Source of the DNA: a virus
Length of the DNA stretch: 37,716 nt
IMG/VR virus record: IMGVR_UViG_3300032242_002443
Span: 1-37,716 of that record
Strand: one strand, 5' to 3'
Each line of letters opens with the position of its first letter. The first letter of the stretch is position 1. The notes below the pieces were generated by a model that did no database searches, was not told the DNA's origin, and saw only the letters and a program-made list of their open reading frames with translations. Both the position numbers and the translations under genes were made by a program. Below, one piece after another: positions 1-37,361 of the stretch.

Positions 1-280
1 CGGGCGCAGGGCAGACAGATCGGCAGCGGGCGCAGGACCGCCCGCCAGCTGATCGGCAGCGCGGGCGCGGGGCAGACAGATCGGCAGCGGGCGCAGGATC
101 GCCCGCCAGCAGGGCAGCGCGGGCGCAGGGCAGGCAGATCGGCAGCGGGCGCAGGATCGCCCGCCAGCAGGGCAGCGCGGGCGCAGGGCAGACAGATCGG
201 CAGCGGGCGCAGGACCGCCCGCCAGCTGATCGGCAGCGCGGGCGCGGGGCAGACAGATCGGCAGCGGGCGCAGGATCGCC
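1..280. repeat. 58/61-bp tandem repeat array with internal hairpins
   Basis: Five head-to-tail units start at 1, 62, 120, 178 and 239, with lengths 61, 58, 58, 61 and 42 (truncated). Units 1 and 4 are identical, and units 2 and 5 share a variant base, so a 177-bp higher-order period is visible. Each unit carries GCGGGCG, then CAGGAT or CAGGAC, then CGCCCGC, a 7-bp inverted repeat with a 6-nt loop. Each unit also has two GATC-type words. The array begins at the window edge and probably continues to the left. No open frame with a start is supported. It lies just beyond the terminator of the minus-strand operon. Iterons, a packaging or recombination site, or expanded non-coding filler are all possible. 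Confidence 0.9.
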
Positions 281-3161: not shown

Positions 3162-3635
3162 ATGACCAGACGCAAAATCCCCGCTTTTCCGTTGCATTTA
3201 TTGGCTGATCACCCTGCCGCGCTCGCCCTGCCTGCCGCTGGTTTCGGCATGTTATGCCGCCTGATCATCCATTTCTGGTTAACAGACTGTAAACCGATAC
3301 CCAAAAATAACGATGAATTGTCAGCAATCATGCGGGCGCACCGTCCTACTATGTCAGGGCATAAAGCGCAGATTTTGCAGATTTTTGGCGATCTGCGCCC
3401 GCAGATCGAACAGCACCTAAAAAATTATAAAACTAAGCAAAGCACCCTGTTAATTGTAGGGCAGCGCGGCAATGCGACACAGCAGGCACAGCGGGCAGCG
3501 CAGCGGGTGACTGATCTGCCTGCCGCTGCCGATCCTGCCGCCCTGCACCCGCTGCGCCCTGTCAGACAGCGCAACAGATCGCCTGCGGGTACAATGCCGC
3601 GCAGCGACAGCGGCAGCAGCAGCTGGTCAGACTGA
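3162..3635 (+). CDS. DUF1376-like small phage protein
   Basis: The 157-aa product begins MTRRKIPAFPLHLLADHPA and continues with a pattern typical of DUF1376 proteins: Pro-x-Phe-Pro-Leu, a Leu/Ala helix, a short His-Phe-Trp segment and a Asn-Asp-Glu-Leu turn. Such proteins usually sit in phage replication or regulation regions, and their function is unclear. The C-terminal third is Ala/Pro/Arg/Ser-rich and looks like expanded low-complexity sequence, matching the DNA that follows. The frame is also open to a TTG at 3126, but the ATG at 3162 fits the family start better. Neither has a good ribosome-binding site. It is transcribed divergently from the peptidase operon and probably ends at the hairpin at 4117. 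Confidence 0.5.
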   Translation: MTRRKIPAFPLHLLADHPAALALPAAGFGMLCRLIIHFWLTDCKPIPKNNDELSAIMRAHRPTMSGHKAQILQIFGDLRPQIEQHLKNYKTKQSTLLIVGQRGNATQQAQRAAQRVTDLPAAADPAALHPLRPVRQRNRSPAGTMPRSDSGSSSWSD

Positions 3636-4110
3636 TCTGCCTGCGCCCGCTGCCTGCGCGGGTCGCTGCTTGTGTCTAAAAAATTTTTCACAAAAATTTT
3701 TTAGACCGTTGCACCTGATCGCCTGATCGCCTGATCGCCTGATCGCCCGCCCGCAGGATCGCTGCCGCCCGCTGCCGATCCTGCCGCTGCCGATCCTGCC
3801 GCAGCTGCCGATCCTGCCGCAGCTGCCGATCCTGCCGATCCTGCCGCAGCTGCCGATCAGGGCGCAGCTGCCGCTGCCTGCCGCCAGCTGCCGCTGCCGC
3901 CCGCTGCCGATCTGCGCCCTGATCGCCCGCAGCTGCCGCCCGCTGCGCCCGATCCTGCCGCAGCTGCCGCTGCCGATCTGCCGCCCGCTGCCGCTGATTT
4001 TTATTTTCCGATCCTGCCCGCTGCGCCCGCTGTCGCTGCCGATTTTCGCCCGCCCTGCGCCCGATCCTGCCGCTGCGCCCGCCCTGCCTGCCCGCGCCCG
4101 CTGCCGCGCC
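3636..4110 (+). repeat. Non-coding low-complexity tract of CTGCC/GATCC/GCCCGC words
   Basis: No gene is supported here. The tract is assembled from a few words in changing order (CTGCCGATC, CTGCCGCAG, GCCCGC, GATCGCC). Early on, GATCGCCT is repeated four times near 3718-3745. The plus strand is C-rich. The same words, read on the minus strand, make up the array at 1-280, so both arms carry them in the sense direction of the adjacent transcription unit. A stop-free frame from 3735 reads Ala-Asp-Pro repeats, but it lacks a start codon and resembles the tail of the preceding gene. Confidence 0.75.
3674..3706. repeat. AT-rich perfect 15-bp hairpin
   Basis: The 15-nt arm GTCTAAAAAATTTTT at 3674-3688 is followed by the loop CAC and its exact reverse complement at 3692-3706. 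The arm is 13/15 A/T and is set inside DNA that is mostly G/C, so it stands out sharply. A DNA-unwinding or cruciform element, an origin component or a processing site are possible. The stem is too AT-rich for a typical terminator. Confidence 0.7.
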
Positions 4111-13784: not shown

Positions 13785-14870
13785 ATGGCTCTTTTTTCTG
13801 GTTCAGGTGTAACACCCTCACTTAAAGGTGTTACCACCAACGTAGTGACCCTTCAATCCGGTCAGGTGCAGCTGCTGTACCCCGCTGGTTGGTATTGGGT
13901 TAAGACTGGTCTTTACACCAGTATTCAACAGTATGACCCTATTACGGGCATTTGGCGTGCTATCGGTGCGGGTGATTCCAACGCTGTTGATCACTTCATC
14001 TACTCGGACGGTGTCAACTATCGTCTTGCCAACCAGACCGGCGCACTCGTCGGCGCTCTGTTGACCAACGCTGGTTCGGGCTACACTTCGGCCCCAACGG
14101 TTACGGCTTCGGCAGGTAATTCGATTTGGCGTGCGATTGTTGGCGGTGCGGTCTCCACGACTGTTACCGTTACCAACGGCGGCACCAACTATTCTTACCC
14201 CCCGATTGTGCAGTTCTCTGCGCCTCCTTCGGGCGGTGTGCAGGCAACCGGCTACTGCACCCTGACTTCAGGTGTTGTGAGTTCGGTGACTGTGACCAAC
14301 CAAGGCGCAGGTTACGCTTCGGCTCCGACCGTTGTGTTTGTCAATGACCCCCGCGAAGGTGTCAACAATGTCACCACCGGTTACAACGCCGCAGCAACTT
14401 CAACTCTGACCGGTGCAGGCACCGTCACCGCAGTTCTCTGCGTTGATCACGGTCTCGGCGGCCAGACTTCGCTCCCCACTCTGGCTTTCGCAGGCGGCGG
14501 CGGTTCGAGCGCAGCAGCGACCGGCATCATGTGCTGGACCATTACGGCATACGCTGCCGGCACTGCCGGTACGGGTCTTTCTGGCTCAATTGCGCGTATT
14601 TCGGCAGAAGACGCGTTTCCAACCACGGCGGCTGCTTACACCAACCCATATGTTCAATCTGGTTTGGTTAAGACCCGCAACGCAGACATCAAGGCACCAA
14701 TTTCTAGTGGTGGTATTACCGCTACGGGGCAGGTCGTTTATGATGGTGGTATCTACACTTCGTCACCAACTCCAGTGGTTATCGCAACGGCTTCGGTGGT
14801 AACGGCTGCCCCTGTTGTGACCTTTACTTTGGGTGGTACGACCGACACCAGCTACATCACTCAGACCTAA
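13785..14870 (+). CDS. Capsid-associated beta-repeat protein, probable decoration protein
   Basis: The 361-aa protein follows the capsid gene. It contains three copies of a short beta repeat with the core Gly-x-Gly-Tyr or similar, followed by Ser-Ala-Pro-Thr (TNAGSGYTSAPTVTA, TNGGTNYSYPPIVQF, TNQGAGYASAPTVVF). It is rich in Thr, Ser, Gly and Val with few charges, as expected for an exposed beta structure. The same repeat family recurs in the tail nozzle gene and at 30514. A head decoration role is inferred from position. A terminator follows. Confidence 0.6.
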   Translation: MALFSGSGVTPSLKGVTTNVVTLQSGQVQLLYPAGWYWVKTGLYTSIQQYDPITGIWRAIGAGDSNAVDHFIYSDGVNYRLANQTGALVGALLTNAGSGYTSAPTVTASAGNSIWRAIVGGAVSTTVTVTNGGTNYSYPPIVQFSAPPSGGVQATGYCTLTSGVVSSVTVTNQGAGYASAPTVVFVNDPREGVNNVTTGYNAAATSTLTGAGTVTAVLCVDHGLGGQTSLPTLAFAGGGGSSAAATGIMCWTITAYAAGTAGTGLSGSIARISAEDAFPTTAAAYTNPYVQSGLVKTRNADIKAPISSGGITATGQVVYDGGIYTSSPTPVVIATASVVTAAPVVTFTLGGTTDTSYITQT

Positions 14871-16111: not shown

Positions 16112-16811
16112 TTACCTAGCGCCCGAGCAACCATCTGCTTTGCTTGCGCCGACGGTGCCGGTAACAACGCCTGTTGCAACGCCGCCTGTTGCAGCATTGC
16201 CTGTGCAAACACCTATTGCCGAACCAGCACCGGTGGTTACACCGGAATCAACTGTTGCACCGCCCCCACAAGCTGAAATGCTTGACCGTATACGCGGCGA
16301 AAATCTTTGGAATGTGGCGCAAGAAAAATATCCAATTTTGAAAAATTTTGACGTTCAATACGCGTACCGTCCGCCGGATTATGACCCGTCGGTACACGGC
16401 GGAATTGAATTTTTGTCTCCCGATGAAACAGATCGTTTTGAAGGGATGCCAGCGGGTAAAATTGGAATTGCGGTGTATGACCCAAACACAACCCCCCTTG
16501 ATATTTTGGGGGATATGGTGTCACACCACATGGTTAACGAAGACCCCACAGTAAAAAAAGTGTACGATGATTTTGTTAAAACACTTACGCCTGAGCAGTG
16601 GGCCGAGTTGCGTGCGGAATATGCTTTTGAAAACCCCAGCGCAAAAGAAACTGGCGAAACTATTCCTCAAGATTGGTTGGATCGTGTGGGCTACCCTTCA
16701 GCGTTTAGAGGGTATTTGTTCAACCAATGGCCTGTTGATCAATATACGGGCGAACAAAAAGAATTGCTCGACACACTCAAACCTTATTTGGGGCTGACCA
16801 ATGGCAATTAA
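16104..16811 (+). CDS. Probable virion protein with Pro/Val-rich N-terminus (235 aa)
   Basis: An AGGAG is spaced 10 nt from ATG 16104, so this start is preferred over the GTG at 16095. Residues 6-55 are a Pro/Ala/Val/Thr linker. From about 60 a folded domain follows, with the segment ILGDMVSHHMVNEDPTVKKV and DRVGYPSAFRGYLFNQWPVD. Similar segments occur in phage-encoded internal or polyvalent proteins in my recollection, but no function can be named. It overlaps its neighbours on both sides. Confidence 0.5.
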   Translation: MVDYLAPEQPSALLAPTVPVTTPVATPPVAALPVQTPIAEPAPVVTPESTVAPPPQAEMLDRIRGENLWNVAQEKYPILKNFDVQYAYRPPDYDPSVHGGIEFLSPDETDRFEGMPAGKIGIAVYDPNTTPLDILGDMVSHHMVNEDPTVKKVYDDFVKTLTPEQWAELRAEYAFENPSAKETGETIPQDWLDRVGYPSAFRGYLFNQWPVDQYTGEQKELLDTLKPYLGLTNGN

Positions 16812-19578
16812 TCCAGAAATTTCAGCCAAAGCAGGACAAGCTCTCGGGCTTCCGCCCGGTTTCAAAGTCTACAGCCCGTTTCCGTTCAAAGGAATGAATT
16901 GGCAAGACGCACCGCACGCGATAGACGACCACGAGTTTTATTGGATTGAAAATTTTGTGCGTCTGGGTAACGGCAATCTGCGCACGCTTGGCGATAAAGG
17001 CACCGCTGTTTACACATCACCCACCGGTAAGACCATTGTATATTTTGAATTTTATACGCTTGGAACGTCATACTATTGCGCAATATTTTTGTCGGATGGC
17101 TCCGCCATTCAGTTAAACATGAAGACGTTGGCGCAAACCACAATTGGCCCAGCGGGAACATTTTACAGCGCAAGCACCGGCTACAAACCCTTTGCCAAAC
17201 AGTGGGGGTCAATCTACCTGCTGATCTCTAACCGCAACACCTCAAACGACTATTGGGCATGGGACGGAACGCTGCTTTACGGTGCAGGCACTGCGGCTCC
17301 TCAAAGTGTCAACATTGCATCAGCCGGTTTTTCTTATTCCAGCACCCCAACCGTAACCGCTTACGGTGGTTCTGGTTCCGGTATGACGTTTGATACGTTT
17401 GTCAACAATGGCGGTATTGCGGAAATCAACATTACCAACCCCGGAACTGGCTACCAGCCGGGCGACATTGTGCAACTTGCGTTTTCTGGCGGTGGTTCTG
17501 ACACATCGGCCATTTTGACCGCAGTACTTTCAGCGGGTTCTGTCGGCGGCGTTTCAATTACAGCGCAAGGGTCGGGCTACACATCCGCCACCATTGCATT
17601 TACCGGTGGCGGCGGTGGTTCTGGCGCGGCAGGAACCGTCATTATTAGTACCGGCAGTGTTACAAGTTACACCAGTCTTGTCGGAGGTTCTGGCTATACA
17701 ACCGCACCAACTATTTCATTTTCTGGCGGCGGTGGCGGGAGCGGTGCAGCAGCAACTGCCACCGTATTAGCGGGCGTAGTAACCGGCATCACCATCACCA
17801 ATGCCGGAACAGGCTACACTTCGCCTCCAGCCATTGCTTTTTCTGGCCCCGGCACCGGCGCATCCGCAACAGCGGTTATCACAGGTGCGGGAAAAGTTAT
17901 TGGGGTCAACATAACATCCCCCGGTTCTGGTTATACTTCCGCACCAATAGCTACAATTTCCGGCACAGGTTCGAGCGCTACCGCTCGCGCAACACTTGCC
18001 CCCGTAGGTGTGGCTTCCGTAACGGTGACAGACGGTGGCACTGGTTTTACCTCTGTTCCACTCATCACTTTTAAAGGTGGTGGGGGTTCGGGCGCAACCG
18101 GTCTCGCGGTTTTAACCGGCACAACGGTGGCGGCAGTCAATTTGACCGCAAGCGGCAGTAAATATACGTCCGCACCAACAATTACATTTACAGGCGGTGG
18201 GAGCGGGGCGACGTTACCTACAGCCACTGTCAATATGAACGGAGATAAAGTTGGGTCAATCTCTATCACTGACGCAGGTTTAGGAATCACAGACAACATA
18301 TCTGTGTCATTTTCCGGTGGCGGAGGTTCTGGCGCAGGCGCTGTCGTTGTGTTGACACCAACCTCTATTGCCTCGGTTGTAGTGTCGTCAACCGGTCAAT
18401 ATTATACCAGTGTGCCAGCGGTTGAGGTTAGCGCGGGCGCGAACAATTCAGCCTACGCAACTGTTGAGCTTATGCCTTACGGCATTTCCGGCTCGGCGAT
18501 GGAAACATTTTTGTCACGGGTTTGGATTGTTAATCCAGCCACACAACCCTTTTCTACAATCCCGCCCGGCAACTTGTGGTTTTACAGTGCGCCCGGATCA
18601 ATCTGGGATTTTGCAACTTCCGATGGTGGCGGTAGTTCAGTTAACACTGATGCGTTTTTGCAAACGCAGTATGTCAACGTGCGCCAATCGTCCGGCTACC
18701 TCTATTTCTTTGGAAATGGCTCGGTGTCGGTGCTATCAAACGTCAATACATCAGGTAGCCCTGCAACAACAACTTTCAACTATCAGAATGTCGATCCGCA
18801 GGCCGGTCTTGATTTCCGTGATTCCATCCAAGATTTTGGCAAATCAATCATCACTTCAAACAATCTCGGTATTTTTGGTTTGTATGGGGGTTCACTCGCC
18901 AACATTTCCAGAAAAATCGAACAACTTTTTGAACTGGCAGCACATCCAGACGTAGGCGGTATCGAACCTTCTGCGGCCATCATGACAATTTATGATGTCA
19001 AACACTACATCAACTATCTGACTTTGGTTGATCCAGACACCAAAATTGCGCGTAATGTAATGTTGCTTTGGAACGAAAAAGACTGGACGGTTGCAAGTCA
19101 GTCAGGAAACCTGACCTTTATCGGCACGCAAAAAGTTGCAAGCAAATACCAAGCGTGGGGCACAGACGGAACGGGGCTATACCCTCTGTTTACCACGCCA
19201 TCATCTACGTTGGTGAAGCGCGTAGAAACCAAATTTTATGGCGCACAGACGGCGTTTCTTCAGAAGCAAGCTCTTGCGGCGTATGTTCAAGCTACTGACA
19301 ATTCAAGCACAAACGCTGGGGTGTCAGGGGCTATTTCTCTGTCCATTTCGGGGTTGGCGCAACAAAACAATTTCAATCCCATGCTGCAAAGTGGTAATTA
19401 TGTCACATCGCTTCAACAGCCCAATTTTCAATCGCCCAACCCATTTTACGGATTTTGGGGAACTTCGCTTGAAGGTATTGGCTTTGTTTTGTTGGGGGCG
19501 CGGTTTACAACGACAAGTCCAGATTTCACATTGGGCAATTTAGTGATAGGGTATGCGGACGTTGTAGCGTCTTATTAA
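16801..19578 (+). CDS. Tail nozzle/stabilisation-type protein with ten-copy beta-repeat insertion
   Basis: The 925-aa protein starts with a conserved-looking platform (PFKGMNWQDAPHAIDDHEFY; then YWIENFVRLGNGNLRTLGD). It returns to that fold near 600 onward (STIPPGNLWFYSAPGSIWDF, MLLWNEKDWTVASQSGN). Between about 165 and 560 it carries about ten copies of a Gly-x-Gly-Tyr-Thr-Ser-x-Pro repeat, each 35-40 aa, with Gly/Ser-rich linkers. The flanking parts resemble podoviral tail nozzle or tubular proteins, and the insertion would protrude from the tail. The same repeat is in the genes at 13785 and 30514. Confidence 0.6.
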   Translation: MAINPEISAKAGQALGLPPGFKVYSPFPFKGMNWQDAPHAIDDHEFYWIENFVRLGNGNLRTLGDKGTAVYTSPTGKTIVYFEFYTLGTSYYCAIFLSDGSAIQLNMKTLAQTTIGPAGTFYSASTGYKPFAKQWGSIYLLISNRNTSNDYWAWDGTLLYGAGTAAPQSVNIASAGFSYSSTPTVTAYGGSGSGMTFDTFVNNGGIAEINITNPGTGYQPGDIVQLAFSGGGSDTSAILTAVLSAGSVGGVSITAQGSGYTSATIAFTGGGGGSGAAGTVIISTGSVTSYTSLVGGSGYTTAPTISFSGGGGGSGAAATATVLAGVVTGITITNAGTGYTSPPAIAFSGPGTGASATAVITGAGKVIGVNITSPGSGYTSAPIATISGTGSSATARATLAPVGVASVTVTDGGTGFTSVPLITFKGGGGSGATGLAVLTGTTVAAVNLTASGSKYTSAPTITFTGGGSGATLPTATVNMNGDKVGSISITDAGLGITDNISVSFSGGGGSGAGAVVVLTPTSIASVVVSSTGQYYTSVPAVEVSAGANNSAYATVELMPYGISGSAMETFLSRVWIVNPATQPFSTIPPGNLWFYSAPGSIWDFATSDGGGSSVNTDAFLQTQYVNVRQSSGYLYFFGNGSVSVLSNVNTSGSPATTTFNYQNVDPQAGLDFRDSIQDFGKSIITSNNLGIFGLYGGSLANISRKIEQLFELAAHPDVGGIEPSAAIMTIYDVKHYINYLTLVDPDTKIARNVMLLWNEKDWTVASQSGNLTFIGTQKVASKYQAWGTDGTGLYPLFTTPSSTLVKRVETKFYGAQTAFLQKQALAAYVQATDNSSTNAGVSGAISLSISGLAQQNNFNPMLQSGNYVTSLQQPNFQSPNPFYGFWGTSLEGIGFVLLGARFTTTSPDFTLGNLVIGYADVVASY

Positions 19579-20148: not shown

Positions 20149-20610
20149 ATGTTAAACATTAGCACAGAAACTATCAACGACGTTCGATCTGAAATTGAAG
20201 AACTGCTCGCGCTGCATTGGAAAGAGATTGCCGTTTGGCAGGACATTCCTCTCGCTCCCATTTGGGAGAGCTATTACGCTATGGAAAAAACCGGAAATAT
20301 GGTCGTTTACACCGTCCGTGACGATCAAAATGCCAATAAATTGGTTGGCTACGCGGTTTTTTTTATGCGGCACCATATGCACTACAAAGATCATAAGTGG
20401 GCCTTAAACGACATCATTTGGGTTCACCCTGATTGCCGTGACGGAAAAATCGGAAGAAACCTTGTTAACTACTGGGAAAAAGACCTACAATCACGCGGCG
20501 TGCATGTTGCGCATGTCAATGTTAAGGTAGCCCATCCGGCGCTTGGTCTGGTTTTGAAGTGGTCAAAATACCAGATCGTCGAAAGTGGGTATGAAAAAAG
20601 GTTAAACTAA
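20149..20610 (+). CDS. GNAT-family acetyltransferase-like protein
   Basis: The 153-aa protein has the GNAT fold order: two helices, KLVGYAVFFM (beta 3-4), ALNDIIWVHPDCRDGKIG with a CRDGKIG acetyl-CoA-binding loop (96-102), then a helix and NVKVAHPALGLVLKWSKY. The last part is typical of phage-virion GNATs. The acceptor is unknown, and such proteins may be packaged. It overlaps the next gene by 1 nt (taATG). The Lys/Ala-rich downstream ejection proteins could be targets, which is speculative. Confidence 0.75.
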   Translation: MLNISTETINDVRSEIEELLALHWKEIAVWQDIPLAPIWESYYAMEKTGNMVVYTVRDDQNANKLVGYAVFFMRHHMHYKDHKWALNDIIWVHPDCRDGKIGRNLVNYWEKDLQSRGVHVAHVNVKVAHPALGLVLKWSKYQIVESGYEKRLN

Positions 20611-28084: not shown

Positions 28085-28286
28085 TGTTGTTGTCGCGGCT
28101 TTCGCTGGCCTCGGCTACGCACTTTCGGCACGTTCTTTGCTTCTTTTGTCCTTAATCGGGGCTTTTGTTTTGTCGGTCATGGCCACAACGTCGCAGACCC
28201 CTGCGGCGTTATATGTTTTGATCGCTTATTGCCTTTTTACAGTAATTCCCGTAGCCTACCTTGAAATCCGCCGGAGGCAACAGTGA
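27945..28286 (+). CDS. Two-helix membrane protein, holin candidate
   Basis: Residues 45-110 hold two hydrophobic segments (VVVAAFAGLGYALSA with RSLLLLSLIGAFVLSVMA, and ALYVLIAYCLFTVIPVAYL), ending in EIRRRQQ. The basic C-terminus is typical of small holins. AGGAG precedes ATG 27945, but the spacing is long. In-frame ATGs at 28017 and 28026 would shorten the overlap with the previous gene from 140 to about 60-70 nt. The end overlaps the tailspike GTG by 4 nt. Holin is a context guess. Confidence 0.55.
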   Translation: MESSESSTVRRLQIEEVSQKRKPQMEVMPQPLAPQTTPTPPQSSTLDVVVAAFAGLGYALSARSLLLLSLIGAFVLSVMATTSQTPAALYVLIAYCLFTVIPVAYLEIRRRQQ

Positions 28287-30097
28287 GCGTCATCCCAACA
28301 GTATCGGCAGACGGCGTAGGTGTCATTTCGGCTGGTCAGCTGAACGCGTACGAGATCAGCTGCTACAATGTAGGGGTGTTACGCACGGTTGTCGGTCAAA
28401 CCGGTATGTCGGTGTTCTTGCAAGGCACCAACACACCGAATGATGGTGGGCAAGGCAATTTTTATTGGGATTACGCATCGACGGCAACGGACAATAACTA
28501 CAGCGTGATCCGGCCATACGGCGTAATTTACGGGGCGTGGTTACGGACGACCGTTTCTTCCACCATTGGTGGCGATGTCAGCAACACTACGGCCACCGCC
28601 ACCGGAACAACCACAGCCAGAACAATAGCAAATCTGTTTGGTGATTACATTAGCGTAAAAGATTTTGGTGCAGATAGTACTGGAACTTCAGATAGTACTG
28701 CTGCTTTTCAAAATGCCGTAAATGCAAGCAACGTAGTAACGGTTCCACCGGGAACATATCTTATTGCTGGTTCGGTAACAATGCCATATGGCGTTAAAAT
28801 AATTGGCTATTCCGATAATGCAACAATTAGGCCAAGTGTTTCTGTAGGCGGCGGTCAAGTAACTCTTGGCGGCGGTTCTATAATTAATGTTACCAGCACA
28901 ACTGGCTCGCCATTTCTTTATTATAGCGGTAATTCCTTTGAAGGGTTAACTTTTTATTACCCAAATCAATTAAGAACATTAAGTACTCCGATTGTTTACC
29001 CGCCAACATTTTCCCCAAATCCTGCTGGGGGAACGACCGAAGTTTATGTAAACGTAGTATGGTCCAACTGTCAGTTTGTAAACAGCTACCGCATTATTAA
29101 TGCGCTTGTAGGGCATTTAGACTTTCAATTTTATGATTTAGTTGGTTTCCCTATTTATCGGGGTATTGAAACGGACGGTTGTGGTGGTACCGACATATTT
29201 AAAAACATTAGCTTTAGCTACTATTATTTCTGCTATTATCTAGATCCGTTAGCACTTTATGCTCAGGCAAACTCTCAAGGTTTTGCAATAGGTCGTTCTG
29301 ATGCCGTTCATATGGAACGTATCTATTGCGGTAATTTAAACGTAGGTATTAGGTTTTTTCAAGGAACTATTAATTCCACAATCGGTGCTTATGGTTCTAT
29401 TGTTGGGTTAAGTTTTGACGGTAATAATTATGGTATTTATTCAGAAGCAACCGATCCTATTGGCATGAATATCGTTGATTGGTTATCTAACTCTAAGATA
29501 TACGATATGATTATTCCCACCGCATCTCAAACCACAAGTAATATTCAAATTACTGGTTTTTTAATATGGGGGTCTAAAACAAAATGTATTGTTATAGATT
29601 ATGCAGGTTCTATTGTTAAATTAGATAACGGTCAATTTTTCACTTACACAACTTCAGCAATTTCATGCAGTGTTACCGGCGTGCAGTTAACAGTGATTAA
29701 CGTTGCATTTGAAGATAGCACAGCAACAACTATTGATACGTCTGCTGCTCAAGTATCTAGTTTAGTTATTACTAATAACATATTGCCTTACCCTTTATCT
29801 TTGCATCAACCTCCAGCAACATTTACCGTTATAAATAATAACGCCGGTGATACATCTTCAACCGTCGCTTCTGCAACAACAATTAACGTATTAAATATTG
29901 GTGATTATGTTTATTTAACAGGAACTACAAACGTGCAAACTATTAATGGTGGGTGGACAGGAAGAACTATTATCATCGTAAGCCAAGGTGGAATGTCTTT
30001 TGTTACCGGCGGCAACATAGCAACAACTAAAGCATTGGCGGCGGGAGTCGGTACTTCTTTGGTGTTTGACGGTGGTGTATGGCACGTTTTAAGTTAG
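28283..30097 (+). CDS. Tailspike with beta-helix domain, adaptor type A
   Basis: A GTG start follows GGAGG. Residues 1-90 form an adaptor module, nearly repeated as the separate gene at 30234. A linker at about 105-130 (TTTARTIANLFGDYISVKDF) leads into a right-handed beta-helix (pectate-lyase-like) region to about 540, ending in a small capping domain (TGRTIIIVSQGG). The beta-helix DNA is AT-rich (for example 20 G/C of 60 at 29401), unlike the flanks. Likely binds or degrades a surface polysaccharide. The catalytic residues are not identifiable. Confidence 0.75.
   Translation: MSVIPTVSADGVGVISAGQLNAYEISCYNVGVLRTVVGQTGMSVFLQGTNTPNDGGQGNFYWDYASTATDNNYSVIRPYGVIYGAWLRTTVSSTIGGDVSNTTATATGTTTARTIANLFGDYISVKDFGADSTGTSDSTAAFQNAVNASNVVTVPPGTYLIAGSVTMPYGVKIIGYSDNATIRPSVSVGGGQVTLGGGSIINVTSTTGSPFLYYSGNSFEGLTFYYPNQLRTLSTPIVYPPTFSPNPAGGTTEVYVNVVWSNCQFVNSYRIINALVGHLDFQFYDLVGFPIYRGIETDGCGGTDIFKNISFSYYYFCYYLDPLALYAQANSQGFAIGRSDAVHMERIYCGNLNVGIRFFQGTINSTIGAYGSIVGLSFDGNNYGIYSEATDPIGMNIVDWLSNSKIYDMIIPTASQTTSNIQITGFLIWGSKTKCIVIDYAGSIVKLDNGQFFTYTTSAISCSVTGVQLTVINVAFEDSTATTIDTSAAQVSSLVITNNILPYPLSLHQPPATFTVINNNAGDTSSTVASATTINVLNIGDYVYLTGTTNVQTINGGWTGRTIIIVSQGGMSFVTGGNIATTKALAAGVGTSLVFDGGVWHVLS
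28599..28671 (+). repeat. 73-bp direct repeat, copy 1 (tailspike joint)
   Basis: This copy matches 35767-35839 with two differences. It encodes TGTTTARTIANLFGDYISV and onward, the joint between adaptor and beta-helix. G/C content changes sharply around it. Confidence 0.9.
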
Positions 30098-30106
30098 AGG
30101 AAAATT

Positions 30107-30160
30107 ATGTGTGATGTTGAAGCAAAATTAAATTCTTCTGAATTGAAAGTGGGTGCATAA
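30107..30160 (+). CDS. Tiny peptide (17 aa), uncertain
   Basis: GAGGA precedes the ATG. The product is MCDVEAKLNSSELKVGA and overlaps the next ATG by 1 nt. Too short to assign. It may be a remnant or a coupled leader of the following small frames. Confidence 0.3.
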   Translation: MCDVEAKLNSSELKVGA

Positions 30161-30237
30161 TGAACATTCAAGCGTTTACACCAATAGACAATACGGTGAC
30201 GTTTACAGCGGCTACTGATGCTAAGGTAAGAACATGA
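30160..30237 (+). CDS. Truncated structural-protein N-terminus (25 aa)
   Basis: The product, MNIQAFTPIDNTVTFTAATD and five more residues, resembles, from memory, the start of a longer phage structural protein and then stops. It overlaps the 30234 gene by 4 nt. It looks like a leftover of a module exchange, though expression as a peptide is possible. Confidence 0.35.
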   Translation: MNIQAFTPIDNTVTFTAATDAKVRT

Positions 30238-30512
30238 GCGTTATACCAACCATTTCCGCAGACGGTGTAGGCGTCATAGCCGCAGGGCAGCTGAATGCCT
30301 ATGTGATCTCTGCTTACAATGTTGGTGTATTGCGCAGCATCACCGGACAAACCGGTATGACGGCTATTCTACAGGGAATAAATGTCCCAGCGGATGGGGG
30401 TCAAGGCGTTTTCTATTGGAATTATGCTTCGGTTGCCCCTGACAACAATTCGACTATTATCGTACCCTATGGGGCCACAACTGGCGCTTGGTTGAAATTA
30501 ACGGGAGTTTGA
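30234..30512 (+). CDS. Stand-alone tailspike adaptor module, type A (92 aa)
   Basis: The protein aligns along its whole length with residues 1-90 of the 28283 tailspike (both start MSVIPT, share SADGVGVI and AGQLNAY, and continue to the GQGxFYWxYAS region). It lacks any beta-helix. AAGG precedes the ATG. It may be a second adaptor binding the tail alone, a decoy, or a spike whose receptor domain was lost. The frame is intact. Confidence 0.6.
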   Translation: MSVIPTISADGVGVIAAGQLNAYVISAYNVGVLRSITGQTGMTAILQGINVPADGGQGVFYWNYASVAPDNNSTIIVPYGATTGAWLKLTGV

Positions 30513-30513
30513 G

Positions 30514-31128
30514 ATGGCACGCATTGTAGGTTTTACGGAACAGCAGGTTCTTACCCCGGTCTATCGGGCGGACGGAAAGATAGCTTCTGGCGGAACGGCG
30601 CAGCTAATCCTTCCCCGTGCGGCACCGCGTTCTTCATTGCTGATTCAAAATACGTCAGCTACCAACACACTGTATTTTGAATTTGGTGGCGCTCGCGCAA
30701 CCGCAACTCTTAGCAACGGCGCTGTTTCCAGCTTCACCATCACAAATGCCGGTTTTGGGTACACCTACCCACCTAGCGTGCATTTCTTGGGTGGAGGCAA
30801 TCCGTTGAACGGTCGTGATCTCGGCCTTGGTTATCCAAACCAATTGGCACCATCGAACTATGCGACGGCACATTGCGTTCTAACTAGCGGCGCTGTCTCA
30901 TCTATCGTAATCGACAATCCCGGCTCCGGCTATGACATTGCCCCGTATATTTTGCTACTGAACGATCCAAACGATAATTTTGGCGCTGCCGTTCCATCAG
31001 CTTCCAGTGGGTTCAAACTAGCGCCCGGTCAATGGTTGCAACAAGACAGCAGTGTGGTCAACACCGATCAAGTTTCAGTTTACGGCGCTTCAACAAACGA
31101 CTCCTATTTCTGCCAATATACAACGTAA
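30514..31128 (+). CDS. Small virion protein with Gly-Tyr beta repeats (204 aa)
   Basis: GGGAG precedes the ATG. The N-terminus (MARIVGFTEQQVLTPVYRAD) is followed by a beta domain with two repeat units of the Gly-x-Gly-Tyr-x-x-x-Pro family (TNAGFGYTYPPSVHF and DNPGSGYDIAPYILL), as in the 13785 and 16801 genes. It probably sits on the virion surface. The exact site is unknown. Confidence 0.55.
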   Translation: MARIVGFTEQQVLTPVYRADGKIASGGTAQLILPRAAPRSSLLIQNTSATNTLYFEFGGARATATLSNGAVSSFTITNAGFGYTYPPSVHFLGGGNPLNGRDLGLGYPNQLAPSNYATAHCVLTSGAVSSIVIDNPGSGYDIAPYILLLNDPNDNFGAAVPSASSGFKLAPGQWLQQDSSVVNTDQVSVYGASTNDSYFCQYTT

Positions 31129-31155
31129 TTTTCTCCGACGCATAAGGCTCCTACA

Positions 31156-34100
31156 ATGTCGGCTTCAGAAACACGCGACCAATTACTTGCCCAAATTAAC
31201 ACGCAAATCATTGCAAATGGGCAAGGCGCTATTACCGGACCTGTCTTGAATAACATTCTTGACAGCATGGTTTTGTCGTCTTTGTTTAATGCTGGTACGT
31301 GGTCGGCAGCTGTTACCTATTCGCCACTCGATGTCGTGCAATATGCTGGTTCGACCTACTACGCCCTTACAACCAACACCAACCAAGTGCCGCCTAATGC
31401 TACCTATTGGCAAATCTTTGCGTCTATTGGCGCGACAGGTCCGCAAGGCCCAGCCGGTCCGTCGGGTGGCGCACTCGTTACCGTAGGCACAACGGCGGTC
31501 AATTCCGGCACAACCGGCTATCTGCTTTATAACAACGCTGGCACTCTTGGTAATCTTGCCGCCAGCACGTTAAGTGTCGGCACGGCGACCAACATTGCAG
31601 CTGGTGCGGCAAATCGAATTGTCTACCAGACCGGCTCCGGTGCAACCTCGTTTCTAACGGCACCAACTGTCACCAGCACTTATTTGCAATGGAACGGCTC
31701 TGCCTTTGTATGGACAACCTTCCCCGGCGTTTCGTCTTTCAGTGCTGGGACGACTGGCCTCACACCAAATACCGCAACGACTGGCGCAGTAACACTCAGT
31801 GGAACGCTTGCGGTTGCAAATGGCGGAACGGGCGTAACATCCTCGACCGGATCTGGTTCTGTTGTTCTTTCCAGCTTCCCAACGCTTGTGTCACCAGCTC
31901 TTGGCATACCTGTTTCCGGTGTCATGTCGAATGTGACGGGATTGCCAATCTCAACCGGTTTGACCGGAGCGGGCACCGGCGTTCTTACAGCTCTCGGTAA
32001 TGCAATTAACGCGACTGGCGGCTTTGTTACATATAGCGGTTCGCTTGGAACACCGACGCAGGGCGTGTTGACCAACGCCACCGGTCTGCCGCTCTCGACC
32101 GGCGTGACCGGCAATCTCTCCGTCAACAATTTGAATAGTGGTACAAACGCCAACAGCGCTACTTATTGGCGCGGCGATGGAACATGGGCCTCGGTATCCG
32201 CGACTGCGGCCTCCATTACCGTTGGCAGCACCGCTATCATTAGCGGGACATCTGGGTACATTCTCTACAACAACAGCGGCTCGCTCGGTAATCTTGCCAC
32301 CACCGGAACGGGTAATGTTGTGTTGGCGACATCGCCGACGCTTGTTACCCCCATCCTTGGAACACCGACTTCAGTAACACTTACAAACGCTACTGGGCTT
32401 CCAATCTCGACTGGCGTGTCCGGTTTGGGTACAGGGGTTGCAACGGCGCTTGGTATTGCTGTCGGTTCTGGCGGAGCTGTTGTTGTAAACGGCGGCGCTC
32501 TTGGAACGCCGTCGTCCGGTACGCTTACGAACGTCACCGGTCTGCCACTCTCGACCGGCGTAACCGGCACGCTCCCCGTCGCAAATGGCGGCACCGGGCA
32601 AGCGTCTGCACTGACGCAATATGGTGTTGTCTATGGTGCGTCTACAACAGCAATGGGCATCACCGGTGCCGGAACCACGGGGCAAGTGCTTGTTGCTACG
32701 ACGAGCGGCGCACCTTCGTGGTCTTCCACCATACCATCCTCGGCGGGCGTCTCGTCCATTACGTTTGGAACCACAGGACTAACACCGTCTTCACCAACAA
32801 CCGGCGCTATAACAGTGGCGGGTACGTTGGCGGTCGCCAATGGTGGAACGGGCGTCACGGCATCGACTGGTGCCAGCAGCGTTGTCTTGCGTGACTCAAA
32901 TTCCAACGTGACGGCAAACTCGCTCTTTGAAGGTTTTACTAGTGTTGCAGCGGCGGGCGGAACGACAACATTAACTGCTGCGTCTACGCCGACATATGTT
33001 GTCACTGGTTCCGGTGGACAAACTTACAGACTCCCGGACGCAACGACGTTGCCCGCAGGAGCGATTTTCTCGTTTAACAACAACCAGACAAGCGGCACCA
33101 TTGTTGTGCAAGGCAGCACCGGAACAACCCTTGCAACATTGCAATCCGGGAGCTTCGTAGATTTCACGTTGCTGGTCAATTCGCCAGCGGCGGGAACTTG
33201 GGATACGCACGCACAAGCGCCTTCAAATGTCAGTTGGTCAACCAACACGCTGGATTGGACGGGATCAATCACCAGCGCGACATGGAACGGCGTGGCGGTC
33301 GCACCTAACCGTGGGGGCACCGGCATAGCGAACAATGTCGCCAGCACACTGACGATTAGCGGCGCGTTTGCAACGACGTTGACCGTCACTGGCACAACAG
33401 GTGTGACGCTACCAACGTCCGGCACATTGGCGACAACTGCTAATATTAACACGGCTATTCCGTCTGCAACGTCATCGCAAATTTACGTTGGCACAGGCGC
33501 AGCCGGTACAGCCGCCGCTGCGTCAACCTTGCCTACTGGCGCTTTCCCAGCGCTGACAGGCGACGTGACGAACACGGCGGGTTCTTTGGCAACGACAGTA
33601 GGTAAGATCGGCGGCAATGCGGTTTCGCTGGCGGGCGCATTTACCACGTCCGGCGCATTTGGACTGACGTTAACGACAACGGCGCTGACCAACGTCACTT
33701 TACCAACGTCCGGCACGTTGGCGACGACCGCCAATACAGTTGCATCGTTCTCCGCCGGTACGACCGGGTTGACGCCAAGCACCGCAACCACGGGCGCGGT
33801 GACGTTGGCTGGTACGCTTGTTGCCGCAAATGGTGGTACAGGACAATCATCTTATGCAGTAGGTGACATCCTTTATGCTTCAACCACCACTGCGCTTTCT
33901 AAGTTGGCCGACGTTGCCACAGGGTCTGTTCTTGTATCCGGTGGTGTCGGCGTCGCCCCTGCGTATTCGGCAACACCAACTGTAACAAGCCTTACTGCTT
34001 CCACGAGCTTAACGTCACCTATCCATAACAGCGGCACTACTTTGTCCTTGCAAACGGGCGGGACAACTGGGTTGTATATCGACGCATCGCAGAATGTGGG

Positions 34101-34812
34101 GATTGGAACAAGCAGCCCCGGATCAAAGTTGGCAGTCACAAGCGGTAACAACGAAGGAATTATTACTACAAATGGGACTCAGACAACTAAGCTGTTCAAT
34201 TCAACATCCATCACCGCTGGCGCGTTGTGGGTTACAAGTAACCATGCGCTAAGTCTTGGAACTAATAACGCAGAACAAATGCGTATCGACACCAGCGGCA
34301 ATTTGCTGGTGGGGACGACATCTTTGCCGATAGCTACAACAAAGGTTGGCATCAGCGGGTCTTCTGGCGTTGCTGTTGGCGTTGTATCACTTGTAAACAC
34401 AGGTCAATCAACCAGAAAATGGTCAACTGGACCAGATGCAAATGGAAGTTTTGTTGTATTTAACGATGCTTCCCTTGGTTTGTATGTAAGTTACGGCAAT
34501 AATGCGTGGACTGCTTCATCGGATGAACGGGTAAAAACCGACCTTGTTCCTATTGAAAATGCCGCAGCAAAAGTGTCATTGCTTCGCGCTGTCACTGGGC
34601 GGTTCAAGACCGATGAAGTTGGCAAAAGCCGCGCATTTTTAATCGCACAGGATGTTCAATCTGTACTGCCAGAAGCAGTTGACGCAAGCGACCCAGACAA
34701 ACTTGGCGTTCAATATACGGATGTCATCCCGCTTCTCGTTGCCGCTATCAAAGAACTATCCGCCAAGAATGACGCATTTGAAACTCGTCTTGCCACACTG
34801 GAGTCAAAATAG
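31156..34812 (+). CDS. Long tail fiber with S74 intramolecular chaperone
   Basis: The 1218-aa protein begins with a type B adaptor (about 1-95, [20 protein letters not shown]) shared with the 35382 spike. A short collagen-like [11 protein letters not shown] follows, and then a long shaft with five VANGGTG-type repeats and many Gly/Thr/Ser strands. The C-terminal ~97 residues form a peptidase S74 domain. S1122 and K1127 in SSDERVK are the likely Ser-Lys dyad, so cleavage before S1122 would free the chaperone after trimerisation. Likely a receptor-binding fiber. Confidence 0.85.
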
Positions 34813-34948
34813 TGTCAAACACATACACTTGGTTCAAATGAAAAATACGGTTTTAAATCGCTTCTTTGGTGACAAAACCGCTTCAAAATAAACTGCTGTT
34901 AGGATATGTTTTTTATGCCGTACCAAACGGTGGTTTAAGGAGCTTACA

Positions 34949-35131
34949 ATGGAAATCCTACTCAAACACACTGTCGAAGAAGTGAACTACATTCTTCAAG
35001 CCTTGGCATTACGTCCGTTTGCAGAAGTGGCGGAATTGATTGCTAAAATTAAAAACAATGCACAAAGTCAGCTTCCCGTAGCGCCAGCTGCACCTGCTGA
35101 AGTTCCCGCAGAATCAGAAATGGCGGCTTAA
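34949..35131 (+). CDS. Hypothetical small protein (60 aa)
   Basis: AAGGAG precedes the ATG. The product begins MEILLKHTVEEVNYILQALA, with a helical N-terminal half and an Ala/Pro-rich tail. It is 2 nt before the membrane protein gene. No family is assigned. The 136-nt gap before it (34813-34948) holds no clear feature apart from its ribosome-binding site. Confidence 0.6.
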   Translation: MEILLKHTVEEVNYILQALALRPFAEVAELIAKIKNNAQSQLPVAPAAPAEVPAESEMAA

Positions 35132-35133
35132 TA

Positions 35134-35385
35134 ATGTTAGGCGTGCAAGAACTAATTAATATAGGAGGGGGCGCTTTTTTAGCCACTCTCGGTTGGTTTG
35201 CACGTCAACTTTATGAAAGCGTCAGAGAATTACGTGAAGACGTTCATCAAATTGAAATCGACCTTCCGACGAGCTACATTCGCCGGGAGGAATACGCCGA
35301 AACGATGAAACGCATTGAAACTATTGTTGAGCGAATTTTTGATAAGCTGGATGCCAAAGCAGACAAACAGGGGCGTAACCAATGA
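35134..35385 (+). CDS. Membrane-anchored coiled-coil protein (83 aa)
   Basis: Residues 6-24 (ELINIGGGAFLATLGWFAR) are the only hydrophobic segment, followed by charged helices (VRELREDVHQIEIDLPTSYI, ending KLDAKADKQGRNQ). The layout of one N-terminal anchor and a helical tail matches small phage membrane proteins of the lysis or holin/spanin region. The spanin function is unproven. Confidence 0.55.
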   Translation: MLGVQELINIGGGAFLATLGWFARQLYESVRELREDVHQIEIDLPTSYIRREEYAETMKRIETIVERIFDKLDAKADKQGRNQ

Positions 35386-37130
35386 CCATTGACACCCGTC
35401 AACAGCTTCTCGGAACGATCAATTCACAGATCAAATTGAATGGAACCGGGGCCATCACCGGGCCAATCTTGAATAATGTTCTGGACACGATGGTCAATTC
35501 GGCTTTGTTTCAAACGGGCGCATGGTCGCAATACACCAGCTACGCGCCGCTCGATATTGCCGAATATGCCGGTAACGCTTACATCGCCAATGTCGCTAAC
35601 GTCAATATAATACCTTCTACTGATCCAAACACATGGACGCCATTTTCATCTGCGTCGACGGTTGCGGGGCTTTCTGGCTACATCCAATACAACAATGGTT
35701 CAGGTGGTTTAGCCGCTTCTTCAAATTTAACTTTTGATGGAACAAACCTAAACGCGCCGGTTACCCCCACCGGAACAACCACAGCCAGAACAATAGCAAA
35801 TTTGTTTGGTGACTACATTAGCGTAAAAGATTTTGGTGCTGTTGGAGACGGTACTACAAACGATACTGCTGCCATGCAAGCTGCCCATAATACTGGTAAA
35901 ACTGTTTACTATCCTGCTGGGTCGTATAAATTTACATCCATTACAATGGCAACAGGAGGTATTATAGGAGACGGTCCTCAACAAACAATTTTGTACCCTT
36001 CACAAACAACAGGTGACGTTATTGTTTGCAGCAGCCCGGCGAATTACGTTGGCCCAGTGTTTCAAAATTTCCAAATGCAACCTCTAAATGTTATGACATC
36101 TGGCACATTGTTAACTATTAAATGTAGCAACACTGCCAATGTCACTACTTACGCTTACGTCAATAATGTTCTTTTTTACCAAAATTATTTTGCTGGTCTT
36201 CTTATGCAAAATTCTATTCAATATAGTGTTTCAAATTGTCATTTTATAAATTACTCAGACGCAGGTTTTACAAGTGAAGACCTTGCAAATCCTGATGCTG
36301 GCGATGCAACTATTTACGGGTGTGTATTTAACACTGCGCGCACATCTGGAAATAGAAACGGGCTTGTGTGGAAATCGGGCGGAGGTCTCCGTATTAACAA
36401 TAATAAATTCCTTGGTGGTCAAAGCGGTATTCTTGGCCTCATTAGTTATAACACAGCGGCAGCAGATTTATATATTGTAGCAAATTCTATTGAAAACATG
36501 GCGTATGCTGGCATTTATTTAGCAAGGGCTGGAGGGTATACAGGAACATTCGGAGGAGTGTTCATCCATAGCAATAATATAGGTAATGATACATATAATG
36601 TTTATTCATCTAATGCTGGTTATACAACTTTTAACATATCAGGAAATACTTTTTACACGGTTAAAAATAATTGCGTTCATATAGCTTTAGATGGAGCTGA
36701 TAACGCACTTATTACGTCAAATGTTTTTGATGCTTCATCTGGTCTTACAGGTGTAAATGGAATTGCTATAGGTTCTAGCAACACGTATGGCCGAATAACC
36801 GGCAATTTATACCGCAGGTTGAACAACCCCTACACAAATGCCAGCGCCACAACCATCGTAGACGAACATCGTCAATTTGGTTCTAGTTCTGCTGCAACAT
36901 CGACTGGGTATGGGTCTTTATATACAGGGTCAGTTGGCGTAACTTTTCCCGTGCCTTTTGTCGCCGCTCCAGTTGTAACAGCAACTTTAAAAGATGTTTC
37001 TGGCCTTGGTGGTGTTAGTGTAGTGGTTTCAGGAGTGTCCACAACGGGATTTACCGCGCAAGTTATTGGGGTAACTAACAGCGTAACCTTGCCATTTAAT
37101 TGGAACGCTAGTGGGGTCGTCTGTGTTTAA
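35382..37130 (+). CDS. Tailspike with beta-helix domain, adaptor type B
   Basis: AGGGG precedes the ATG. Residues 1-90 match the fiber adaptor (TRQQLLGTINSQIKLNGTGA), followed by the shared joint (TARTIANLFGDYISVKDFGA). A right-handed beta-helix spans about 155-500 (for example YYPAGSYKFTSITMATGGII). The C-terminal ~75 residues (GSVGVTFPVPFVAAPVVTAT) look like a small carbohydrate-binding H-type-lectin-like module. The beta-helix DNA is strongly AT-rich (15 G/C of 60 at 36181). Confidence 0.75.
   Translation: MTIDTRQQLLGTINSQIKLNGTGAITGPILNNVLDTMVNSALFQTGAWSQYTSYAPLDIAEYAGNAYIANVANVNIIPSTDPNTWTPFSSASTVAGLSGYIQYNNGSGGLAASSNLTFDGTNLNAPVTPTGTTTARTIANLFGDYISVKDFGAVGDGTTNDTAAMQAAHNTGKTVYYPAGSYKFTSITMATGGIIGDGPQQTILYPSQTTGDVIVCSSPANYVGPVFQNFQMQPLNVMTSGTLLTIKCSNTANVTTYAYVNNVLFYQNYFAGLLMQNSIQYSVSNCHFINYSDAGFTSEDLANPDAGDATIYGCVFNTARTSGNRNGLVWKSGGGLRINNNKFLGGQSGILGLISYNTAAADLYIVANSIENMAYAGIYLARAGGYTGTFGGVFIHSNNIGNDTYNVYSSNAGYTTFNISGNTFYTVKNNCVHIALDGADNALITSNVFDASSGLTGVNGIAIGSSNTYGRITGNLYRRLNNPYTNASATTIVDEHRQFGSSSAATSTGYGSLYTGSVGVTFPVPFVAAPVVTATLKDVSGLGGVSVVVSGVSTTGFTAQVIGVTNSVTLPFNWNASGVVCV
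35767..35839 (+). repeat. 73-bp direct repeat, copy 2 (tailspike joint)
   Basis: Matches 28599-28671 at 71 of 73 positions and encodes the same linker, between a type B adaptor and a different beta-helix. Confidence 0.9.
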
Positions 37131-37193
37131 TTTTACAAATGTTAAAAACGGATTTAATACGCCGTAAAGTCAAAAAATCTGTAAAGGTGAAGC

Positions 37194-37361
37194 ATGGCAA
37201 AACCCGGTCTTTACGCTAACATCAATGCCAAACGTGACCGCATCCGCAAAGGATCGGGCGAAAAGATGCGTTCGCCGGGATCATCCGGCGCACCCACAAA
37301 CGATGCTTTCCGCAAATCTGCACGCACTGCAAAACGAAACAAGCGTCGTGGGAGAAAGTAA
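37194..37361 (+). CDS. Small basic phage protein (55 aa)
   Basis: AAAGGTG precedes the ATG. The product begins MAKPGLYANINAKRDRIRKG and ends in NKRRGRK, about one-third basic. From recollection, similar MAKPGLYANI proteins are common in podovirus-like genomes, without a known function. It overlaps the next gene by 1 nt. Confidence 0.7.
   Translation: MAKPGLYANINAKRDRIRKGSGEKMRSPGSSGAPTNDAFRKSARTAKRNKRRGRK

What the first reader, a model, noticed from the sequence alone, without database searches (positions are those of the whole stretch)
28599..35839. 73-bp near-identical joint between adaptors and AT-rich beta-helix domains
Copies at 28599 and 35767 (71/73 identical) fall exactly between the N-terminal adaptor and the receptor-binding beta-helix in two different spikes. 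Upstream DNA has the phage average composition, while downstream DNA falls to about 25-33% G/C in sampled lines. This is a clear recombination seam for swapping host-range domains.
Basis: partly seen in the sequence, partly recalled or inferred. Interest (0 to 1): 0.75.

Follow-up and report, generated by a model that had tools for sequence, protein, structure and literature searches.

The report
Shared hinge DNA in two tailspikes
Two different host-attachment spikes of one uncultured freshwater-type phage share an almost identical 73-letter DNA stretch where the tail adaptor meets the receptor-binding part; it marks a place where such parts have been exchanged, a kind of domain swapping already known in other phages.

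Summary
Positions 28599-28671 and 35767-35839 match 71/73, in the same reading frame, with two synonymous differences. Upstream identity is 29/72 and downstream identity falls to 37/72 and then 28/72. The encoded peptide is the start ("cap 1") of a PF12708 right-handed beta-helix in two tailspikes with unrelated adaptors.

Peptide conservation alone does not explain the DNA identity. 22 of 25 shared amino acids use the same codon (9.3 expected, P about 5e-8). Joint pairs in other multi-spike phages with the same motif mostly sit at chance.

Third-position G/C shows that the joint belongs to the AT-rich beta-helix module, not to the adaptor. In spike 1 the compositional break falls on the joint's 5' edge. 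In spike 2 it lies 65-215 bp earlier.

Syntenic relatives carry the same adaptors with other C-termini and no joint. A different phage group shows a clean beta-helix swap whose 5' edge lies 46 bp past the same motif. The 23-mer core of the 73 bp was not found elsewhere in IMG/VR.

Best reading: a conserved cap segment used as a domain-exchange seam, with DNA recently shared between the two spikes. Comparable motifs and experimental tailspike recombination are published, so this is a new member of a known kind. Active swapping in this phage, and host range, are untested.

The parts
28599..28671 (+). Joint copy 1, encoding (A)TGTTTARTIANLFGDYISVKDFGA, the cap of the beta-helix of spike 1
   Evidence: 71/73 to copy 2, same frame; codon test P=5e-8; third-position G/C change point 28604, range 28598-28625
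35767..35839 (+). Joint copy 2, same peptide, in spike 2
   Evidence: 71/73 to copy 1; compositional shift lies upstream, 35553-35703
28283..30097 (+). Spike 1 (604 aa): adaptor A, short linker, joint, AT-rich beta-helix
   Evidence: PF12708 46.1 bits (cut-off 27), phrog_2234 tail spike
35382..37130 (+). Spike 2 (582 aa): adaptor B, linker, joint, AT-rich beta-helix, possible C-terminal H-type lectin (below cut-off)
   Evidence: PF12708 36.7 bits, PF09458 20.3 bits below its cut-off of 24
28283..28573 (+). Adaptor A of spike 1, third-position G/C 0.62
   Evidence: 63-64% identical to adaptors in L064 and L078, 59% to L077, 68% to ORF 30234-30512; G/C3
30234..30512 (+). Stand-alone second copy of adaptor A (92 aa), without receptor module
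   Evidence: Direct repeat family D6, 73% over 129 nt; 73% identical to L078
35382..35663 (+). Adaptor B of spike 2, third-position G/C 0.55
   Evidence: 45-50% identical to adaptor B in the fibre and in L064, L077 and L078; G/C3
31156..34812 (+). Tail fibre (1218 aa): adaptor B fused to repeats and a C-terminal S74 chaperone
   Evidence: PF13884 above cut-off, PHROG tail fibre hits; adaptor 82% identical to L078
28673..30094 (+). AT-rich receptor-side module of spike 1, third-position G/C 0.26
35841..37127 (+). AT-rich receptor-side module of spike 2, third-position G/C 0.28

Best explanation
The 73 bp encode the conserved N-terminal cap (the last helix and first strand before the rungs) of a trimeric tailspike beta-helix. 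The cap peptide is kept in many phages because it ends the adaptor and starts the beta-helix (shown by sequence; the structural role is inferred). Because every such module begins with it, it is the natural 5' boundary at which receptor modules are joined to, or exchanged on, tail adaptors (shown in other phages). In this phage two AT-rich modules sit behind two unrelated adaptors, and the cap DNA was recently shared between them, most likely by short-patch homologous recombination or gene conversion through the cap (inferred). The result is a 71/73 identity island with unrelated upstream and strongly diverged downstream sequence.
For: Codon identity far above expectation: 22/25 vs 9.3, P=5e-8. 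Controls with near-identical joint peptides within one genome (L084, L085, L092) are at chance. Pooled codon identity across unrelated joints is 39% vs 37% expected. The joint's third-position G/C (0.26/0.30) matches the beta-helix (0.26/0.28), not the adaptors (0.63/0.51); the spike 1 change point falls on the joint's 5' edge, permutation p<=0.001. Same adaptors with other C-termini and no joint in syntenic relatives G025, G012, G014 and in G013. Natural swap: L096 vs L093 are 90.6% identical through adaptor and joint to +46 bp, then 1.56 kb without a match, then 97.2% from just after the spike stop codon. L084/L085/L088/L092 show further changes of similarity within -16 to +63 bp of the joint end. 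An exact 35-nt run is in the range generally held sufficient for homologous recombination (own knowledge).
Against: The 23-mer core of the 73 bp, and the peptide in any codons, was not found in other viral contigs, so no recombinant of these two spikes was seen. Only one such high-identity pair is known, so one event explains it. In spike 2 the compositional break lies before the joint. In L096/L093 the adaptors themselves are about 90% identical, so the crossover need not have been in the joint. No recombinase was recognised among the ORFs tested.
Confidence: 0.6

Rival explanations
1. Both modules, each already starting with the same cap DNA, were imported from one AT-rich donor pool in which modules had been shuffled behind a common cap. 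No recombination through the joint happened in this phage.
For: Both modules and both joints share low third-position G/C. Close relatives lack joint and beta-helix, so import is needed at some point. In spike 2 the foreign composition includes the linker before the joint.
Against: No donor with this cap DNA was found in IMG/VR or phage records. It still requires exchange behind the cap, only elsewhere.
Confidence: 0.27
2. Pure functional constraint: the peptide is conserved and the DNA similarity is incidental.
For: The peptide motif is widespread: 411 of 50,697 phage records match the joint region at E<=0.01, and R136, D144, D150, F151, G152 and A153 are invariant in 18 spikes.
Against: Codon identity 22/25 vs 9.3 expected, P=5e-8, while controls sit at chance.
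Confidence: 0.05
3. A dedicated DNA element: recombinase site, diversity-generating retroelement, or structured RNA under nucleotide-level selection.
For: High identity of both copies at the nucleotide level.
Against: RNA folding no better than shuffles, z -0.16 and -0.53. Direct, not inverted, repeats; the only inverted-repeat pair overlapping a joint is 24 nt at 75%. Differences are C/T, not adenine-directed. No recombinase or reverse transcriptase hit in the ORFs tested.
Confidence: 0.03
4. Assembly artefact or chimeric join at a repeated segment.
For: Repeats are places where metagenome assemblies break or misjoin; contigs L012 and L009 end and start at a joint with an exact 127-bp overlap.
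Against: Both ORFs are intact across the joint, flanking gene order agrees with relatives, and there are two synonymous differences between copies. The repeat is shorter than a typical sequencing read.
Confidence: 0.05

Closest known systems
Conserved DNA motifs before and after the receptor-binding domain in lytic coliphage tailspikes (PMC10408124)
   Different: Their motifs (44 and 95 nt) average 63-69% identity across genera; here 97% between two spikes of one genome and no DNA copy found elsewhere. Motif letters are in figures only, so sequence equivalence was not tested. No terminator-like site was found directly after either spike here.
Kuttervirus GTTAVSL motif and module exchange among TSP1, TSP3 and TSP4 (PMC8432352)
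   Same: Conserved motif at the adaptor/beta-helix boundary in different spikes of one phage family; same receptor modules on different adaptors.
   Different: In the two CBA120 copies found the motif is followed by another sequence, not ARTxAxxFxDxxxVKDFGA.
Experimental tsp4-tsp5 recombination in Ackermannviridae phage S117 (PMC11414711)
   Same: Recombination between two spike genes replaced one receptor module by another.
   Different: Laboratory phage with an engineered extra spike gene and CRISPR counter-selection; here a natural 73-bp segment and no observed event.
Natural beta-helix swap between L096 and L093
   Same: The same cap motif stands at the 5' edge of a swapped beta-helix, with adaptor and downstream gene shared.
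   Different: Different phages, typical TARTLANRFADVVNVKDFGA cap, homologous adaptors, so homology is not confined to the cap.
Domain mosaicism of receptor-binding proteins (PMC10684548) and 'cap 1' in Klebsiella depolymerases (PMC13385381)
   Same: Tailspike mosaics with pectin-lyase-like domains; cap 1, the last helix before the beta-helix, is used as the domain boundary.
   Different: Survey and structural classification, not a near-identical DNA joint inside one genome.

Membership tests
Phage tailspike with right-handed beta-helix (PF12708) | PF12708 match above the curated cut-off | tested here: met
   46.1 and 36.7 bits against a cut-off of 27
Phage tailspike with right-handed beta-helix (PF12708) | Conserved N-terminal tail adaptor shared with relatives | tested here: met
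   Adaptor A 59-64% and adaptor B 46-50% identical to adaptors at syntenic loci
Phage tailspike with right-handed beta-helix (PF12708) | Cap motif before the beta-helix | tested here: met
   Invariant R136, D144, D150, F151, G152, A153 over 18 spikes; a solved tailspike (28lx, 8ck1) aligns over the motif; local helix-strand prediction with pLDDT 74-90 at residues 141-190 in an otherwise poor model
Phage tailspike with right-handed beta-helix (PF12708) | Trimer and polysaccharide binding or cleavage | not testable with these tools
   No experiment; whole-chain model mean pLDDT 39
Receptor-domain swap hotspot (as in PMC10408124) | DNA at the boundary more conserved than its flanks, beyond peptide constraint | tested here: met
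   71/73 vs 29/72 and 37/72; codon test P=5e-8
Receptor-domain swap hotspot (as in PMC10408124) | Same DNA motif shared by different phages | tested here: not met
   No DNA copy in IMG/VR or phage records; the motif is shared only as peptide
Receptor-domain swap hotspot (as in PMC10408124) | Natural recombinants with the breakpoint at the motif | tested here: inconclusive
   Clear for L096/L093 and the L084 group with the same peptide motif; none for this phage
Receptor-domain swap hotspot (as in PMC10408124) | Conserved terminator motif after the receptor module | tested here: not met
   No terminator-like site within 30098-30233 or 37131-37210
Diversity-generating retroelement or invertible tail-fibre locus | Reverse transcriptase or recombinase gene, adenine-directed differences or inverted repeats | tested here: not met
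   No such hit in the ORFs tested, not every ORF; direct repeats with C/T differences; inverted repeats weak

The most novel reading that the evidence does not exclude
The two near-identical caps are a standing arrangement inside one genome: recombination between them, 7.17 kb apart, continually produces adaptor-module reassortment or loss of the fibre between them, giving a population of phages with mixed receptor sets without outside donors.
Probability: 0.08. Interest if true: 0.6.

Novelty: new member of a known kind. Interest (0 to 1): 0.32.

Why it matters
It gives a measured case in which DNA identity at a tailspike domain boundary exceeds what the conserved peptide explains. It also shows that in most other multi-spike phages examined the same motif does not need such an explanation. 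Codon-level testing thus separates real exchange seams from mere functional conservation, a point left open in the published motif reports. The L096/L093 pair is a clean natural receptor-module swap that could be used to study how such exchanges occur.

Tried and rejected
Exact and degenerate scans for the joint in viral contigs found nothing; the scan itself works (13 matches with the common cap pattern). The same pattern found nothing in genome contigs. An ungapped comparison suggested joint-only islands between L084, L085 and L088; blastn showed their adaptors are related with indels, so that claim was dropped. Joint-only islands between two spikes of one genome in L084 and L092 have codons at chance, so they are not counted as recent exchange. 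RNA structure, inverted repeats and a terminator after the spikes: nothing. The AlphaFold2 model of spike 2 is poor overall (mean pLDDT 39), so no fold search was made. A terminase search for a host gave only a 7-kb contig in a Beijerinckiaceae bin (64%) and a Saccharibacteria bin contig (35%): host unknown.

Full report
Observation. Bases 28599-28671 and 35767-35839 agree at 71 of 73 positions, with exact runs of 35, 10 and 26 nt. Both lie in the same frame of two spike genes and encode the same peptide, TGTTTARTIANLFGDYISVKDFGA; the two differences are synonymous. Upstream the genes are unrelated (29/72). Downstream identity falls to 37/72, as expected of distantly related beta-helix starts, and then to chance. 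The window is a virus record of 37.7 kb with no further copy.

Not just a conserved peptide. With each spike's own codon usage, 9.3 of 25 shared degenerate residues should use the same codon; 22 do (P=5e-8). Among joints of other phages the pooled figure is 39% against 37% expected. Within-genome pairs with near-identical joint peptides in L084, L085 and L092 are at chance (9/23, 7/22, 13/25); one L083 pair is weakly raised (12/20, P=0.024). The cap peptide is thus conserved by function across phages, while the window's DNA identity needs recent shared descent.

Where the seam is. PF12708 begins inside the joint in both spikes. Third-position G/C is 0.63 and 0.51 in the adaptors, 0.26 and 0.30 in the joints, and 0.26 and 0.28 in the modules. 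A change-point test puts the break in spike 1 at 28604 (28598-28625), on the joint's 5' edge. In spike 2 it is at 35604 (35553-35703), about 65-215 bp before the joint. The joint therefore belongs to the receptor module; in spike 2 a linker belongs to the AT-rich part too.

Neighbourhood. Adaptor A occurs twice (spike 1 and a stand-alone 92-aa ORF at 30234-30512), and adaptor B twice (the S74 fibre 31156-34812 and spike 2). Relatives found through the terminase or CHAP protein (L064/G025, L077/G012, L078/G014, and the more distant L079/G013) keep adaptor A. The first three also keep the order: holin-like ORF, adaptor A protein, 204-aa protein, adaptor B fibre. Their adaptors carry other C-termini: a domain that looks C1q-like to me but has no Pfam match, collagen repeats, and others. 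No cap was found in the records searched for it or seen in the listed ORFs of the rest. The cap came with the beta-helix modules.

Exchange elsewhere. A search for the common cap pattern found 13 viral contigs. L096 and L093 are 90.6% identical through adaptor and cap up to 46 bp beyond the cap. They then lack any match for about 1.56 kb (P22-tailspike-like versus another beta-helix), and are 97.2% identical again from 15-31 bp after the spike stop. L084, L085, L088 and L092 show repeated losses of similarity within -16 to +63 bp of the cap end. Contigs L012 and L009, from one sample, end and start at a cap with an exact 127-bp overlap, which looks like an assembly-graph fork; this is suggestive only.

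Mechanism. I hold that the cap is the functional start of the module and hence the usual 5' boundary in exchanges, and that the two window copies were recently made alike by recombination or conversion through this short stretch, or arrived already alike from one donor pool. The first is preferred because no donor was found, but the evidence does not separate them firmly. Active swapping and effect on host range are untested.

Known work. Conserved DNA motifs at the end of tailspike anchors are proposed as recombination hotspots (PMC10408124). A GTTAVSL motif was proposed for Kutterviruses (PMC8432352); the CBA120 copies are a different sequence. Recombination between spike genes was seen in the laboratory (PMC11414711). 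Receptor-protein mosaicism is surveyed in PMC10684548, and 'cap 1' as a boundary is used in PMC13385381. The finding is a new member of this known kind, with unusually high identity inside one genome.

Noticed in passing
window 1-280 and 3510-4105: Two G/C-rich (about 69%) repeat arrays in opposite orientation (GATCGGCAG seven times at 18-256; CTGCCGATC nine times at 3526-3970) flank about 3.2 kb with two minus-strand ORFs, one a PHROG peptidase; none of the terminase relatives L014-L063 shows them.
   Followed up: partly
window 30234-30512: A stand-alone copy of tail adaptor A without receptor module, next to the spike that carries the fused copy; in L078 the adaptor A protein is also short (136 aa).
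   Followed up: partly
L096 4168-5729 and L093 2416-3981: Clean natural swap of a tailspike receptor module between two otherwise 90-98% identical phage contigs.
   Followed up: yes
L012 9995-10121 and L009 1-127: Two contigs of one metagenome end and start with an exact 127-bp overlap lying on a cap motif, as at an assembly-graph fork.
   Followed up: no
window 20149-20610: A GNAT acetyltransferase gene (PF00583) sits among the structural genes.
   Followed up: no
window 13785-14870, 16801-19578, 30514-31128: Three proteins match the same PHROG families of large virion structural and baseplate proteins; the first two also share a direct repeat of the 'GSGYTSAP' type.
   Followed up: no
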